Below are positions 2,937 through 32,932 of a DNA stretch of 53,451 nucleotides, piece by piece. The translations under genes and the position numbers were made by a program. Each line of letters starts with the position of its first letter. Within the stretch, counting starts at the first letter, position 1. Location of the stretch: the IMG/VR virus record IMGVR_UViG_3300048927_000744, positions 1 to 53,451 of that record; one strand, given 5' to 3'. The notes below the pieces were generated by a model. It saw nothing but the letters and a program-made list of their open reading frames with translations, had not been told where the DNA came from and ran no database searches. The stretch comes from a virus.

Positions 2937-3134
2937 TTATTCGTCGTCTGGATCTGGTGGATCTGCCAGGCCACACATCAGCTTGGCCTGATAGGGCATG
3001 TAACCCTCCTCTCGGAGGGCGTCGTAGCGCTGATAGTCGGCGGCAAAGTAGCTGCACTCATCACACAGTCGGCTGGCCTGTTCTTCGGCAGACAACGGTG
3101 TATCGCAGTGTCGGCATTGATCTAGCAGTGACAT
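2937..3134 (-). CDS. Small two-CxxC zinc-ribbon-like protein, 65 aa
   Basis: A short protein with two CxxC pairs (CRHC near residues 6-9 and CDEC near 23-26), the layout of a small zinc ribbon. The C-terminus is acidic and Pro-rich. Such proteins are common among phage early genes, where they may bind DNA or act on host RNA polymerase; nothing here decides which. I chose ATG 3134, which starts just after the PrtN-like gene ends at 3136. An upstream in-frame ATG at 3179 would overlap that gene. Confidence 0.55.
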   Translation of the reverse strand: MSLLDQCRHCDTPLSAEEQASRLCDECSYFAADYQRYDALREEGYMPYQAKLMCGLADPPDPDDE

Positions 3135-3135
3135 A

Positions 3136-3459
3136 TCACGGCTCGTCTTCGACGGCTTCTGGTCGCGGCATATCTTCATCCGCCTTGTAGGCGCGAATGT
3201 CGATTAGCGAGGCCACATGCTTGATATGAGCGTACTTCGGTGCCTTTCGGCTGTTGACCAGCGTTGTCACGGGCAGTTGAATTCGGCCTGTGGTAATTGC
3301 GTCGGCAAAAGATCCTTCGTTGAGGTTCCGGAAGTACCGTTCGCGCAACTTTTCCACCGGGATTAGAACGTCACCAAAGGTCCGGTACAGCAGTTCGACT
3401 GTCACCGGATCGGGTGCGGGCAGCAGTCTTAGTGGCTGTTGGTTAGCGTGTGCAGTCAT
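3136..3459 (-). CDS. prtN: PrtN-type pyocin activator, 107 aa
   Basis: Transcriptional activator of the PrtN family, which in P. aeruginosa switches on pyocin genes when the PrtR repressor is removed after DNA damage. The diagnostic core is present: TVELLYRTFGDVLIPVEKL near residues 20-38, then YFRNLNEGSFADAI and the basic segment with NSRKAPKY. The length matches the family. I chose ATG 3459; a further in-frame ATG at 3492 would add 11 residues overlapping the neighbour. It lies in the leftward operon downstream of the LexA/CI-type repressor. It may therefore control late phage genes or cross-talk with resident pyocins (inference). Confidence 0.88.
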   Translation of the reverse strand: MTAHANQQPLRLLPAPDPVTVELLYRTFGDVLIPVEKLRERYFRNLNEGSFADAITTGRIQLPVTTLVNSRKAPKYAHIKHVASLIDIRAYKADEDMPRPEAVEDEP

Positions 3460-25277: not shown

Positions 25278-25781
25278 ATGATTCCTCAAACTTTGTTTAA
25301 CACGAACCTGTTTGTCGACGGCGTGAACTTCGCCGGCGATGTGCCGAGTCTGACCCTGCCCAAGCTGACGGTTAAGACCGACGAATATCGTGCCGGTGGT
25401 ATGGCCGGTGCAATTGAGATGGCCCAGGGTTTGGAAAAACTGGAAGCGTCCTTTGTCACTAAGGGTGTGCGTCGAGAGTCGTTGAAGCACTTCGGCCTGG
25501 CCGATGGCACGGCCTTCAATGCGACGTTCCGAGGGGCTTTCAGGGGGCAAAAAGGGGCAGTGACGGCTGTCGTCGCCACCCTGCGAGGTTTGCTTAAAGA
25601 GGTCGATCTTGGGGATTGGAAAGCCGGTGATCCTGCTGAGATCAAGCATGCCGTTGCGCCTTCTTACTACAAGCTCGAAATCGACGGTCGCGTCATGTAC
25701 GAGATCGACATGGTCGCGGGCGTTCAAGTAATCGACGGTAAAGATCAACTCGCTGACATTCGCACCGCGCTCGGCCTCTAA
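25278..25781 (+). CDS. Major tail tube protein FII, 167 aa
   Basis: P2 gpFII-family tube subunit that forms the inner channel within the sheath. The start MIPQTLFNTNLFVDGVNFAGDVPSLTLPKLTVKTDEYRAGGMAGAIEMAQGLEKLEASF is typical, and the C-terminus has YKLEIDGRVMYEIDMVAGVQVIDGKDQLADIRTALGL. Length equals the family (about 170). It directly follows the sheath gene. Confidence 0.95.
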   Translation: MIPQTLFNTNLFVDGVNFAGDVPSLTLPKLTVKTDEYRAGGMAGAIEMAQGLEKLEASFVTKGVRRESLKHFGLADGTAFNATFRGAFRGQKGAVTAVVATLRGLLKEVDLGDWKAGDPAEIKHAVAPSYYKLEIDGRVMYEIDMVAGVQVIDGKDQLADIRTALGL

Positions 25782-25795
25782 GGGAATAGATCCAA

Positions 25796-26395
25796 ATGAA
25801 TAAAGCAACTTTTAAAGAAGTACCGGCCTGGCTGTCGCTCACTGCACTCGCTGCCGTCGTGACCCTCACGCGGCCGAGCAATGCCAACGGCGTGCAGGTC
25901 GAGACCTTGACCTTGCGTGCGCCGCTTGTGCGTGAAGTGCGGGCAGCCGACCGCGCCTCTAACGGCGACGAAGAACAGCGTGAGCTGATGTTGTTCGCGG
26001 GATTGGCAGAGGCGGGCGTTAAGGATCTGGAAGGGCTGAAGCTTGCGGACTACCGCCGTCTTCAATCTGCCTATTCGCACTTGGTACCCGATACTGACTA
26101 TTCGGCGTCGATGCCATCGTGGTTGTCGGTCACCACCGACCAGGCCGTGGTTACGCTTTCCTGTTCGAGTGAAATCAACGGGGTGACGGTCGATAAATTA
26201 GCTCTGCGATCTCCGACGGTGGGCGATGTTCGCACGGCTAATCGCGAGTCGGGCGGGGATGACGAACAGCGCGAACTGGTGTTGTTTGCCGCGCTTGCCG
26301 GTGTACCTGTCGCGGATCTGGAGGGCCTGAAGCTGGTGGATTTTAACCGCCTGCAGGCCGGCTATTTTCGTATGGACCAAGACGACGGGGTTTGA
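25796..26395 (+). CDS. Tail assembly chaperone gpE-like, internally duplicated, 199 aa
   Basis: Tail assembly chaperone at the P2 gene E position. P2 gpE is about 90 residues; this protein is twice that because the domain is duplicated. Residues 21-93 and 118-190 align throughout: VTLTRPSNANGVQVETL with VTLSCSSEINGVTVDKL, and DEEQRELMLFAGL..KDLEGLKLADYRRLQ with DDEQRELVLFAAL..ADLEGLKLVDFNRLQ. It ends at TGA 26393 in GGG GTT TGA C, where the following frame continues open (see 26391-26507). The two copies have diverged, so the duplication is old. Confidence 0.8.
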   Translation: MNKATFKEVPAWLSLTALAAVVTLTRPSNANGVQVETLTLRAPLVREVRAADRASNGDEEQRELMLFAGLAEAGVKDLEGLKLADYRRLQSAYSHLVPDTDYSASMPSWLSVTTDQAVVTLSCSSEINGVTVDKLALRSPTVGDVRTANRESGGDDEQRELVLFAALAGVPVADLEGLKLVDFNRLQAGYFRMDQDDGV

Positions 26396-26507
26396 CCCTG
26401 GCGTCATCAAAATGGCCGCGAAACGTCTAGCGGCGGAAACAGGATTTTCCGCTGCTGAGATTCTGTCGATGCCGTTTGCAGAAATGGTGTGGTGGCTCAC
26501 GGATTGA
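26391..26507 (+). CDS. Candidate frameshift extension of gpE (E'-like), 38 codons
   Basis: Immediately at the gpE stop the +1 frame is open for 38 codons, giving FDPGVIKMAAKRLAAETGFSA and ending in a small hydrophobic/aromatic FAEMVWWLTD. P2-like phages make an extended E+E' chaperone by ribosomal frameshifting here. The junction GTT TGA C resembles the prfB type +1 site (slippery codon followed by TGA C). The frame could also be read as a separate 31-residue protein from ATG 26412, but no good ribosome binding site precedes it. Frame direction is +1 (or -2), unlike the -1 of P2. Confidence 0.5.
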   Translation, partial: FDPGVIKMAAKRLAAETGFSAAEILSMPFAEMVWWLTD

Positions 26508-26545: not shown

Positions 26546-29500
26546 ATGGCGAACAAAATCGCCCTCGGGCTGGTGATCGGCGGTGCCGTCAGCGCGACTG
26601 TCGGTGCTGCGTTCAAAGATGTGACGGGGCGTATCAAGCGTCTAGAGGCGGAAGGTCTCAAGGCTCGAGTTCTGCAGCGTACTATTGGCGACACCATTCG
26701 CTTGCGCGATGAATGGAAGAAGGCCCACGACAGCGGCTCAGAGGGGGCGTCCAAGCTGTTGGGCCGGTTGAACTCCAACCTCGATAGTTTGAAAAAGCAG
26801 GGGATCGAGGTTGGCCGGTTGGAGAAAGCCTATCGGTCACTGGGGCAGACGGCCAACAAAGCTGAGCTTAAAGCCAGGGGGCACCAGCAGCTTGATGCCG
26901 GTAAGAATGGCATGAAAAGCGCGGTCGGCGCCGCTGTTGTTGGCGTCGGTGTGCTGGCTGTGCCGACGAAGGTTAGCGCAGACTTTGGGGCCATTGTTCG
27001 TGATATCGCGATCAAGGCTGGCATTGCCAACAAGCCACAAGAAAAGGAGATGTCGCGCAAGATTATCGATACTTCGCGCGACACTGGCATGGCGCGCAAT
27101 GACGTGGCCGACGTCGTTAACCAGTTGGTCGGCGCCGGTATGGAGTTAAGCAAGGCCCTGGAATATGCGCCGGTCGCAGCCAAGTTTGTCGTGGGGCAAG
27201 GTTCGAGCGGTGTCGATACGGCCAAGATGATCAACGCGTTGGGGCAGAACGCCAAAATCACCGACCCCAAGCAGATGCAGCAGGCCCTTGAGGCTATTGC
27301 CTACCAAGGGCAAGCGGGTAGTTTTGAAGCGGCCGATATGGCTAAGTGGTTCCCTGAGCTGTTGGCGAACATGGGCAGCCTCGGCATAACTGGCATGGAT
27401 GCGGTGACGCAGCTGGGGGCCATGCTGCAAGTGCAGATGAAGTCTGCCGGCGGCGCCGATGAGGCGGCGAACAACCTCAAGAACTGGATGAGCAAAATTG
27501 GCTCCGGCGATACCGTCAAGGCATATGCGAAGGCCGGTATCGACTACAAGGGTTCGATGCAGACCGGTTTGCAAAACGGAATGTCCACGCTTGAAACCAG
27601 CATGTCGCTGGCGCAGAAGTACATTCAGGCCACTGATCCGAAGCGCGCGGCTGCAATGGCTGAGGCGACTGCAAAGATCAGTAAGGAATCCGACCCGGAG
27701 AAAGCCAAGGCCATGATGGCCTCGTTAGAAGAGTCACTGCGCACCGGTGACCTGTTCGCCGACATGCAGGTGAAGGCAGCGCTTTCTGCCTATATGCAGA
27801 ACAAGGCGTTGTACAGCCAGCTCAAAAACGATTCGCGTGACGCTACGGGCATTCTCGACAAAAACCTCAGCGAGCGACGTGAGGCATCGTCACAGAAGTG
27901 GGCCGAAATGGCTCAGTCGATGGATGATGCAATGCGCAGCGTTGGGGACGCTTTGCGCCCGGTCACAGACACCGTGGCTGAAGCTTTGACCAAAGTCACC
28001 AAGGGTATTACCTCGCTGTCTGACAGCGCGCCTGGGGTGGTGACTGGCATCGTTGCTGTCGGTGGCGGGCTTGTCGCGCTCAAAGGCCTGCTCAGTTCTT
28101 TCAAAATTGCCAAAGGGTTGCTCAACGTTGCCCGTGGCACGCTGGGTGGTAAGTCCGGCGAAGTGCAAAAAGTCTTTGTGACCAACTCCAAGGATGGCGC
28201 CGTGGGTGGCGAACCCAAAGGCAAAGCCGGGAAAGCCCTGTCGTTAGTTGAGACCGGTCTTAAGGCGGTGGCTTCGCTCAAGGGTGAGCCAGCCGATGGC
28301 GAGGGAAAGGATGACAAGAAGCCCGGCAAGTTTGACCTTGTCGCAACTGGCCTTAAGGTCGTTTCGCTGGCTAAAGAGGCGGCGTCTGCGGACAACGAAG
28401 GCACCGGCGATGTCGATTCAGGGGCGGGAGAGGGTGTCGTCCAAAAAGTTTTCGTCGTTAATGCGAACGCAATGGGTGGCCTCACTGGCGGGTCGGGCGA
28501 ATCACGTCGGCGTCGTCCCGGTTCAAGACGTAATCCTCCGCGCCGTCGGCCGTCACCACCTCGTGCGGGTGGCCCACCACGTCCTCGTGTGGCGCCGCCG
28601 CGACCGCCAGTGCCTCGGTCTGCGTTACCGGCCCCGCGTCCATTGATGCCACGGCCTGCGCCTGCGATGCCGGCACCGCGTCCACCGATGCCACGGCCTG
28701 CGCCTGCGGTACCGGCCCCGCGTCCACCGATGCCACGGCCCGCTCCTGCGGTACCGGCCATACGTCCATCAGTGCCAAGTCCTGCTGCGCCGGCCTTGCA
28801 TCCGACAGTGCCACGGCCCCCGGTGCCTGTTCCTGTCCCACATGCGCCTATTCCGTCAATTTCTGTTCCCAGTGGTGCGATGGCTAAACTGGGCGGGGTC
28901 GTGCAAGCGGTCGGCAAGATCGGCAAAGCCGCCAAGATGATACCTGGTGGCTCGCTGATGGAGGCCGGCGCCATGGCCTTCGACACCTATGAGAATGCCA
29001 AGACCAAGGACGAAAAGGCCGAAGGTTATGGTGCTGCAGCAGGCAATCTTGCCGGCACCATGGCCGGAGCTGCGGCAGGGGCGGCTATTGGCTCGGTGGT
29101 ACCTATCATCGGGACCGCTATTGGCGGGCTGGTGGGTGCTTATTTGGGCAGCATGGGTGGTTCGGCGCTGGGTGGTGCTGCGGGTAAGTCGTGGTTTGGA
29201 GGTGAAGATGAAAAGCCTGCGCCACCTGTAACGCCGTTGCTGATGGCGCCTCGGCCGGGCCCCGCTATTCCAAGCTTGGCCGCCATGGGCAAGTCATTCA
29301 ATAGCGCGAACGGGTCGGGTGCATTGCTGATGGCGCCGGCACCTCAGGCTCCTGTGCTGGGGGATGTAGCACGCTCCCTTGCGGTGTCAGCACCGAGCAA
29401 ACCGGCAGCAGAGGCGATTCAATCCAAAGAGCCGGAGAAGCCTGTCCCGGCCAAAGTGGATCAGAAGTTTGAATACTCGCTGACCATGCCGATTACGGTG

Positions 29501-31844: not shown

Positions 31845-32408
31845 ATGTCGGTCACCGAACAACAGCTGCAACGCATCATGCCGAACGCCCGCCGCCAAGC
31901 GGGCGTTTTTGTATCTGCCCTCAATACGGCGATGGTCAATCGCCAAATCAACACGCCGAACCGTCAGGCCGCGTTCCTGGCCCAGGTCGGTCATGAGTCG
32001 GGTCAACTGCAGTACGTTCGCGAGCTGGGGGGCGATCAGTACCTGAGCAAATACGACACCGGCAACCTGGCTACGAAGCTCGGCAACACCCCGGAAGCCG
32101 ACGGTGATGGTCAGCGCTACCGTGGCCGTGGACTGATCCAGATCACCGGCCACGACAACTATCTGCGCTGCAGCCTGGCACTGTTCGGTGATGAGCGATT
32201 GCTGCGCACCCCCGAGCTGCTCGAGCAGCCGCAATGGGCGGCAGAGTCAGCGGCGTGGTTCTGGTACGTGAATGGGCTGAATGCGCTCGCGGATCAGGAC
32301 CAGTTCAACACCATCACCCGCCGGATCAATGGTGGCCTCAATGGCCTGGAGGATCGGCTGCAGCTGTGGGCCAGGGCGAGGGCGGTGTTATGCGTTTCTT
32401 CGATCTGA
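31845..32408 (+). CDS. Endolysin, glycoside hydrolase family 19, 187 aa
   Basis: Peptidoglycan-cleaving GH19 (chitinase-like) lysozyme. Conserved core: FLAQVGHESGQLQYVRELGG (about 42-62, with probable catalytic Glu50 in HESGQL), RYRGRGLIQITGHDNY (about 92-108) and WFWYVNGLNALADQDQFNTITRRINGG (about 138-165). No signal peptide, so export depends on the holin at 10018. ATG 31845 is preceded by CTGGAG. The end overlaps the Rz gene. Confidence 0.93.
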   Translation: MSVTEQQLQRIMPNARRQAGVFVSALNTAMVNRQINTPNRQAAFLAQVGHESGQLQYVRELGGDQYLSKYDTGNLATKLGNTPEADGDGQRYRGRGLIQITGHDNYLRCSLALFGDERLLRTPELLEQPQWAAESAAWFWYVNGLNALADQDQFNTITRRINGGLNGLEDRLQLWARARAVLCVSSI

Positions 32409-32932
32409 TCCCCGCGCAGTTCCGTATCGCTGCCGTCGGCGTGCTGTTGTTGATGGTGATTGCCGGATCTGCTGCGTTGGCCTGGACTGCCCAGGACTGG
32501 CGTTATGGCCGGGAGCTGGAGCGTCAGGCCCGGCTACACGCGGACACCCTCAACGAGTTATCCCAAGCGTCTGCCGCCCTGCAGCGTACCGAGCAGGACA
32601 AGCGTCTGGCCTTGGAGCAGCGCCTGCAGAACAAAGACGAAACCCACTACAAGGAATTGATCGATGAGCAAACCAAGCAGGCTCGTCTGCGTGATCGCCT
32701 GGCTACTGCTGATCTGCGGCTGTCAGTCGTACTCGCCGCCACCGACGCCACCAGCGGCTGTTCAGTGCCAACCACCGCCACCTCCGGCCGCGTGGTTCAT
32801 GGCACCGCAAGAGCCCAACTTGACCCAGCGCATGCTCAACGAATTATCGGAATCACCGATACCGGCGACCAAGGATTGATCGCCCTGCGGGCTTGTCAGG
32901 CCTACGCAAAAGAAGTTTCTACACCGAAGTAA
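32390..32932 (+). CDS. i-spanin Rz-like, 180 aa
   Basis: Inner-membrane spanin. An N-terminal membrane segment (about residues 12-30: IAAVGVLLLMVIAGSAALAW) is followed by a long charged coiled-coil helix (about 35-110) that spans the periplasm, with later AARAC-type ending typical of Rz proteins. It partners the lipoprotein encoded inside it (32664-32879) to fuse inner and outer membranes. Start ATG 32390 overlaps the endolysin. Confidence 0.88.
   Translation: MRFFDLIPAQFRIAAVGVLLLMVIAGSAALAWTAQDWRYGRELERQARLHADTLNELSQASAALQRTEQDKRLALEQRLQNKDETHYKELIDEQTKQARLRDRLATADLRLSVVLAATDATSGCSVPTTATSGRVVHGTARAQLDPAHAQRIIGITDTGDQGLIALRACQAYAKEVSTPK
32664..32879 (+). CDS. o-spanin Rz1-like lipoprotein, 71 aa, nested in Rz
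   Basis: Fully embedded in the Rz gene in another frame, as in lambda. It has a lipoprotein signal (basic start, hydrophobic CVIAWLLLICGC with lipobox Cys at about 20) and a short Pro-rich mature part (SPPPTPPAAVQCQPPPPPA), the hallmark of Rz1. Start ATG 32664. The embedded lipobox and Pro-rich stretch make this a confident call. Confidence 0.88.
   Translation: MSKPSRLVCVIAWLLLICGCQSYSPPPTPPAAVQCQPPPPPAAWFMAPQEPNLTQRMLNELSESPIPATKD

What the first reader, a model, noticed from the sequence alone, without database searches (positions are those of the whole stretch)
25796..26507. Duplicated tail chaperone gpE ending at a prfB-like +1 frameshift site
The gpE-like protein is double the usual size with two aligned copies (21-93 and 118-190). 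At its end the sequence GGG GTT TGA C leads into a +1 frame that stays open for 38 codons and has the aromatic-rich ending of an E' extension. P2 uses a -1 shift, so a +1 (or -2) shift at a TGA-C stop would be a variant mechanism for the conserved tail-chaperone frameshift. A ribosome-binding-like GGGG lies just upstream as in prfB, though not at the same spacing.
Basis: partly seen in the sequence, partly recalled or inferred. Interest (0 to 1): 0.55.

Follow-up and report, generated by a model that had tools for sequence, protein, structure and literature searches.

The report
Forward ribosome slip in tail chaperone

Summary
The sequence described is real: a P2-type tail cluster with a doubled gpE chaperone (199 aa, two PF10109 domains) and a conserved extension E' in the +1 frame. 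A +1 programmed frameshift is well supported, but not at GTT TGA. In 203 of 203 distinct relatives not drawn by that codon, an in-frame TTT followed by C lies at a nearly fixed distance before E'; the NTT T(G/A)A stop site is present in 172 of 203 and absent from 24 of 24 distinct R-pyocin-like loci. In IMG/VR, YFR(L/F)VQDD is written with TTT at least 120 times and with TTC never. Third-base change is low from that TTT to the stop (56 steps per 9 codons, against 141-294 in 69 upstream windows), as expected if both frames are translated. Best reading: tRNA-Phe slips from UUU to UUC at 26366-26369, giving gpE plus a 45-residue tail. Similar sites are known in influenza PA-X and human PLEKHM2. 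Related gpE genes reach a homologous extension by -1. The mechanism is inferred from sequence; nothing was measured, and an RNA element is not excluded.

The parts
25796..26395 (+). gpE, tail assembly chaperone, 0-frame product of 199 aa with two tandem Phage_TAC_7 domains
25859..26083 (+). first TAC_7 domain (residues 22-96); near its end it reads YSH in place of YFR, without TTT C
26150..26377 (+). second TAC_7 domain; carries the slip site near its end
   Evidence: half 26105-26395, residues 16-91
26363..26371 (+). proposed +1 slip site, codons TAT TTT CGT (E, P, A sites); slippery tetranucleotide TTTC at 26366-26369
26370..26504 (+). +1-frame extension E' (45 codons, VWTKTTGFDPGVIKMAAKRLAAETGFSAAEILSMPFAEMVWWLTD); stop TGA 26505-26507
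26370..26392 (+). stretch read in both frames under this model, with suppressed third-base change
26390..26396 (+).
25278..25781 (+). tail tube FII, directly upstream
   Evidence: PF04985
26546..29620 (+). tape measure protein, directly downstream; presumed client of the chaperone
   Evidence: PF10145; phrog_794, phrog_28

Best explanation
The gene makes two products. Most ribosomes read gpE in frame 0 and stop at 26393. A minority slip forward one base while peptidyl-tRNA-Phe sits on UUU (26366-26368): the anticodon re-pairs with UUC, the ribosome goes on in the +1 frame from 26370, and it makes gpE with a 45-residue tail E'. By analogy with lambda gpG and gpGT, the shared part would bind the tape measure protein and the rarer tail would bring in the tube protein. 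Shown here: conservation of the frame, of the slip tetranucleotide, and of low third-base change between slip and stop. Inferred: that ribosomes slip there, how often, and what the products do.
For: In-frame TTTC before E' in 203 of 203 distinct loci (246 loci whose E' matches a protein motif; loci drawn with TTT left out), 196 at 51 nt and 7 at 48 nt. The codon has 0 third-base changes on the tree against 15 for the other conserved Phe (-36) of the gene. R-pyocin-like loci keep TTT in 24 of 24 although Phe is TTT 25, TTC 484 in mechanical ORFs of 150 or more codons in those loci. Third-base steps over the last 9 codons 56; 69 upstream 9-codon windows 141-294, mean 221. The drop begins at TTT (codon -10: 15 steps; -9: 0). 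+1-frame Trp in 128 of 128 clusters. In mechanical ORFs of 150 or more codons of 80 genome loci, TTT is rarer before CGN (18 of 229 Phe) than before other codons (446 of 2559), p 8.8e-5. E' is homologous to the -1-frame extension of related gpE (hhalign probability 94.4, E 8.5e-8). [quoted passage not shown]
Against: No protein or reporter data. CGC/CGT in the A site is not a rare codon in Pseudomonas as far as I recall, so the cause of a pause is unknown. A small consensus hairpin over the slip site and the stretch after it scores z -4.7 against 30 column shuffles in one window of six (consensus energy only -3.6 kcal/mol; the other five windows -0.4 to -2.9), so an RNA element could hold these codons fixed instead of +1-frame coding. 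The test that allowed changes are those mild in the +1 frame is borderline (Spearman 0.70, p 0.054, n 8; upstream control 0.03, n 76). Single upstream codons also have few third-base changes (5, 7 and 7 steps). In the window's own tail genes TTT is not avoided before C (6 TTT, 6 TTC, the slip site included). The loci are related and come from capped, best-first searches.
Confidence: 0.8

Rival explanations
1. One reading: +1 slip of the last sense codon NTT at a TGA/TAA stop in poor context, as in prfB.
For: 128 of 128 clusters end NTT T(G/A)A C/T although NTT is 12.8% (456 of 3569) of Leu/Val/Ile/Phe codons elsewhere in the gene; the first base changes 24 times, the TT never. Many loci have the exact prfB string CTT TGA C (36 of 80 genome loci).
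Against: Breaks with E' kept: 10 GTA TAG, 4 NTT TAG, 2 displaced stops of 120, 8 CTG TAA, 24 of 24 distinct R-pyocin-like loci. It does not explain the fixed TTT or the low third-base change upstream. Under the favoured model the TT is the first two bases of a +1-frame Phe codon; GTA TAG gives Tyr.
Confidence: 0.08
2. Both sites work in loci that have both: UUU_C as the main site and the shifty stop as a second route into the same frame (a variant of the best explanation, so the odds overlap).
For: Both are present in 172 of 203 distinct loci; CTT TGA C is a known shift site, and P. fluorescens prfB has CUU UGA C (PMC13245932, passages).
Against: No independent signal for the second site once +1-frame coding is allowed for.
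Confidence: 0.1
3. No frameshift: E' is a separate small protein with its own start.
For: The window has an ATG in the frame at 26412; 55 of 128 clusters have an ATG/GTG/TTG in the first 14 E' codons, 22 of them an ATG. R-pyocin-like loci have a conserved ATG in the +1 frame.
Against: 56 of 128 clusters have no ATG/GTG/TTG in the frame up to E' codon 14; 0 of 128 have one with an SD tetramer at 5-14 nt (R-pyocin-like loci not tested this way). It does not explain TTT or the low third-base change upstream of such starts.
Confidence: 0.04
4. A -2 shift as in phage Mu.
For: Same frame relation; Mu is the known -2 case (PMC5009743, passages).
Against: Neither TAT TTT nor GGG NTT allows re-pairing two bases back (reasoning). 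The string seen in Mu (CGG GGG CGA) is not at this junction but is in L327.
Confidence: 0.02

Closest known systems
P2 gpE / gpE+E' (PF10109, -1 frameshift)
   Same: Same place between tube and tape measure genes, same chaperone family by name, C-terminal extension homologous to that of -1 relatives
   Different: P2 is annotated -1, as are most related genes sampled here by reading; this lineage uses +1, most likely at UUU_C. In this window the chaperone domain is doubled.
Influenza A PA-X and human PLEKHM2 +1 frameshift (UCC_UUU_CGN)
   Same: UUU in the P site followed by C; A-site codon CGN in 196 of 203 distinct loci; no proven further stimulator (PMC3498833, PMC12551717, passages)
   Different: Bacterial ribosome and phage gene; the codon before TTT is TAT or TAC in the 196, not TCC; 7 distinct loci have TTT CTG
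prfB (release factor 2) +1 frameshift
   Same: +1 direction; CTT TGA C ends many of these gpE genes; the codon before the proposed slip codon is TAT in 105 of 128 clusters, as is typical before the shifty stop of prfB (PMC13245932, passages)
   Different: The stop is not conserved across the lineage and the constraint points upstream. Anti-SD pairing at the prfB spacing is weak before NTT (-1.3 kcal/mol) and modest before TTT (-3.2, with stronger places elsewhere in the gene).
Phage Mu gp41 -2 frameshift
   Same: Chaperone named in the same Pfam family; same frame relation
   Different: Different slippery string and direction (PMC5009743 passages)
HSTV-2 (archaeal myovirus), chaperone shift called very likely +1
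   Same: +1 in a tail chaperone, as stated in the review PMC5009743 (passages)
   Different: Its site could not be compared; two primary papers are not held

Membership tests
Phage_TAC_7 (PF10109) tail assembly chaperones | Pfam match above cut-off, between tube and tape measure genes | tested here: met
   132 bits against cut-off 25, two stretches; neighbours PF04985 and PF10145
Tail-chaperone programmed frameshift (P2 E/E' type) | Conserved out-of-frame extension homologous to E' | tested here: met
Tail-chaperone programmed frameshift (P2 E/E' type) | -1 direction | tested here: not met
   E' lies in the +1 frame in the loci of this lineage examined
prfB-type shifty stop | Conserved shift codon plus stop across the family | tested here: not met
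   172 of 203 distinct loci; exceptions
prfB-type shifty stop | SD-like element 3 nt before the shift codon | tested here: not met
   mean anti-SD pairing -1.3 kcal/mol at that spacing before NTT
UUU_C class of +1 frameshift | In-frame UUU followed by C at the start of the both-frame stretch | tested here: met
UUU_C class of +1 frameshift | +1-frame coding (not only RNA-level) constraint after the slip codon | tested here: inconclusive
   Trp 128 of 128; Spearman 0.70, p 0.054, n 8; a weak hairpin covers the stretch
UUU_C class of +1 frameshift | Measured slip with Phe as last 0-frame residue | not testable with these tools
   needs mass spectrometry or reporters
Mu-type -2 frameshift | CGG GGG CGA-type string at the junction | tested here: not met
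   not in the window junction; present in Mu and L327

The most novel reading that the evidence does not exclude
A UUU_C class of +1 programmed frameshifting works in bacteria with little or no further stimulation, is fixed across the Pseudomonas R-type tail lineage including R-pyocins, and arose when one gene family switched shift direction while keeping the same extension domain.
Probability: 0.68. Interest if true: 0.72.

Novelty: new variant of a known kind. Interest (0 to 1): 0.62.

Why it matters
Tail chaperone frameshifting is widespread and, as I recall, mostly -1. A lineage that reaches a homologous extension by +1 suggests that the two products are what is kept, not the direction. 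The site would be a compact +1 signal in bacteria, testable with one silent change (TTT to TTC). It also suggests that R-pyocin operons, which are being engineered as antibacterials (PMC11762384, listing only), contain a fusion product that is missing from at least one public annotation (L046).

Tried and rejected
prfB-like site as the main shift site: at first it looked strongly supported, then was rejected after the TTT scans and their exceptions. Slip on GGG (tRNA-Gly): GGG in 23 of 128 clusters only. -2 shift: no re-pairing (reasoning). Transcriptional slippage: only four T in a row (reasoning). RNA structure: RNAalifold over six windows, z -0.4, -2.7, -4.7, -1.5, -2.9, -1.8 against 30 column shuffles each, consensus energies -2.6 to -5.8 kcal/mol; weak, not excluded, no covariation test done. 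Anti-SD pairing: -1.3 kcal/mol at the prfB spacing before NTT, -3.2 before TTT, a stronger place (-4.8) before the stop that includes the CAG/CAA codon that swaps freely, and the strongest (-5.9) far upstream; no stimulator claimed. AlphaFold2 of the doubled gpE: pLDDT 49.6, not used for a fold search. A Pfam match for the 37-codon part of E' alone: none. Papers on HSTV-2: not held. Frames in other TAC_7 genes, from samples of 274, 119 and 293 genomes with capped loci: one search read minus-strand loci in the wrong orientation; one search repeats those 34 and by eye gives 30 in -1, 3 in +1 (all of this lineage), 1 unclear (L287); one search gives by eye 19 of 20 in -1, the other (L327) Mu-type. 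The plus-strand rows were read by eye and not counted. One search, a regex look at 10 further regions, printed 3, one of them a tube gene; not followed.

Full report
What is there. The window is an IMG/VR virus record with a P2-type contractile tail cluster: sheath, tube, gpE, tape measure, gpU. gpE (25796-26395) is 199 aa with two PF10109 domains that are 53% identical. The ORF ends GAC GGG GTT TGA C and the +1 frame beyond it is open to the stop at 26505-26507. Of the 44 relatives first fetched, 25 are doubled (197-199 aa) and 19 single (18 of 102 aa, one of 97), so the doubling probably belongs to one branch.

Is the +1 frame real? Yes. All 44 first relatives have a 37-codon E' in +1. Of the best 80 of 335 found with a more distant member, 78 have it in full and 2 run off the stored stretch. 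Of the best 80 of 196 in genomes (Pseudomonas records and one titled Pantoea), 79 have 37 codons and one 40. E' is homologous to the extension that related chaperones carry in the -1 frame (hhalign probability 94.4, E 8.5e-8, 9 against 6 sequences). P2 itself is annotated as -1, and in phages Mica and Murka the extension lies in the -1 register.

Where does the shift happen? In 128 clusters (203 loci kept of 205; L084 and L108 dropped because they run off) the last codon is CTT 78, GTT 41, ATT 5, TTT 4, always before TGA or TAA and then C or T. But codon counts showed a second fixed point: the Phe of ..YFR.., nine codons before the stop, is TTT in 128 of 128, with no change on a tree built without that region. 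The other conserved Phe of the gene has 15 third-base changes. Third-base change over the last nine codons totals 56 steps; in the 69 nine-codon windows upstream it is 141-294, mean 221. Within the stretch, sites where a silent frame-0 change would be mild in the +1 frame still vary (CGC/CGT 18 steps, CAA/CAG 14, codon -2 13), while those where it would be harsher vary little (Leu before Val 0, Val 5, Asp 5 and 1). The rank correlation is 0.70 with n 8, p 0.054, and 0.03 upstream with n 76: suggestive, not proof.

Separating the two sites. R-pyocin-like loci (30 loci, 24 distinct) keep TTT CGC CTG GTG in 24 of 24, against a Phe usage of 25 TTT to 484 TTC in mechanical ORFs, and have E' in +1, but their frame-0 ORF runs on to another stop. 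Among those 120 loci, chosen by TTT and not by the stop, the stop site is GTA TAG in 10, NTT TAG in 4 and displaced in 2, and the base after the stop is a purine in 2 others; E' stays in +1 in all, one being cut by the end of the stored stretch. A scan for broken stop sites found 10 stretches: 8 are gpE genes ending CTG TAA, in which the Phe has moved by one codon yet TTT is again followed by C (TTT CTG); 2 are unrelated. The single stretch found with TTC in an R-pyocin-like pattern is not a gpE gene. Taking E' by its own protein motif and leaving out loci drawn with TTT, 246 loci give 203 distinct regions; 203 of 203 have in-frame TTTC (196 at 51 nt, 7 at 48 nt) and 172 of 203 have the NTT T(G/A)A site.

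Mechanism. [quoted passage not shown] Firth and colleagues describe this for influenza PA-X at UCC_UUU_CGU, with the junction peptide in hand, and suggest a class of UUU_C shift sites (PMC3498833, passages). PLEKHM2 uses UCC_UUU_CGG at about 1.3%, apparently with no further signal needed (PMC12551717, passages). In Salmonella tRNA-Phe slipped at UUU-CAA when the Gln tRNA was low (PMC3617221, passages). The window has TAT TTT CGT. In mechanical ORFs of the 80 genome loci, 18 of 229 Phe codons before CGN are TTT, against 446 of 2559 before other codons (p 8.8e-5); in the window's own tail genes no such avoidance is visible (6 TTT and 6 TTC before C). Separate initiation of E' is not conserved. 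No clear stimulator was found; a weak hairpin over the slip site (z -4.7 in one of six windows) and modest anti-SD pairing at the prfB spacing before TTT (-3.2 kcal/mol) are open leads.

What is known. The review PMC5009743 (passages) says that tail chaperone shifts are -1, -2 or +1 in different phages, with Mu -2 and HSTV-2 very likely +1, and describes +1 shifts in Listeria phage structural genes. PRFect (PMC10274946, passages) says that no general motif has been identified for forward shifts. A search for UUU_CG with bacteriophage and frameshifting found only PMC3498833. Searches on pyocin or tailocin with frameshift terms (3, 6 and 6 papers; 25 listed of 360) were seen as listings, with passages read only of PMC2647930 and PMC5411513; none of what I saw describes this shift. 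The library holds open-licence papers only and most of the listed papers were not opened, so this is not proof of absence.

Verdict. The finding is real and conserved. The direction +1 is right; the site is most likely 26366-26369 rather than 26390-26395. It is a new variant of a known kind.

Noticed in passing
L331, L349, L355, L369, L387, L388, L420, L421, L423, L441: gpE genes ending GTA TAG C in place of NTT T(G/A)A, with E' still in +1; the +1-frame Phe becomes Tyr.
   Followed up: yes
L451-L457, L459: A small group in which the slip Phe has moved one codon (TAC AAC TTT CTG), keeping TTT C in frame.
   Followed up: yes
G305:C61, G329:C52, G346:C1:1335466-1335981, G515:C1 (two places): Other open frames of 191-226 aa with two PF10109 matches; in the one whose end was read (L304) the extension appears in -1. 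Doubling of this chaperone may have happened more than once.
   Followed up: partly
L327: A PF10109 gene with the Mu-type string CGG GGG CGA and a likely extension in the +1/-2 frame, perhaps a further Mu-like case.
   Followed up: partly
L046 3103-3628: A public P. aeruginosa R-pyocin-like record annotates gpE (3103-3447) but leaves the rest of E' without a gene.
   Followed up: no
28480-28870: The tape measure gene has a proline/arginine-rich repetitive insert; long open frames lie on both strands there.
   Followed up: no
32234-32932 and 32664-32879: By eye, a spanin pair: a small lipoprotein-like ORF (LLICGCQS) embedded in another frame of a larger ORF.
   Followed up: no
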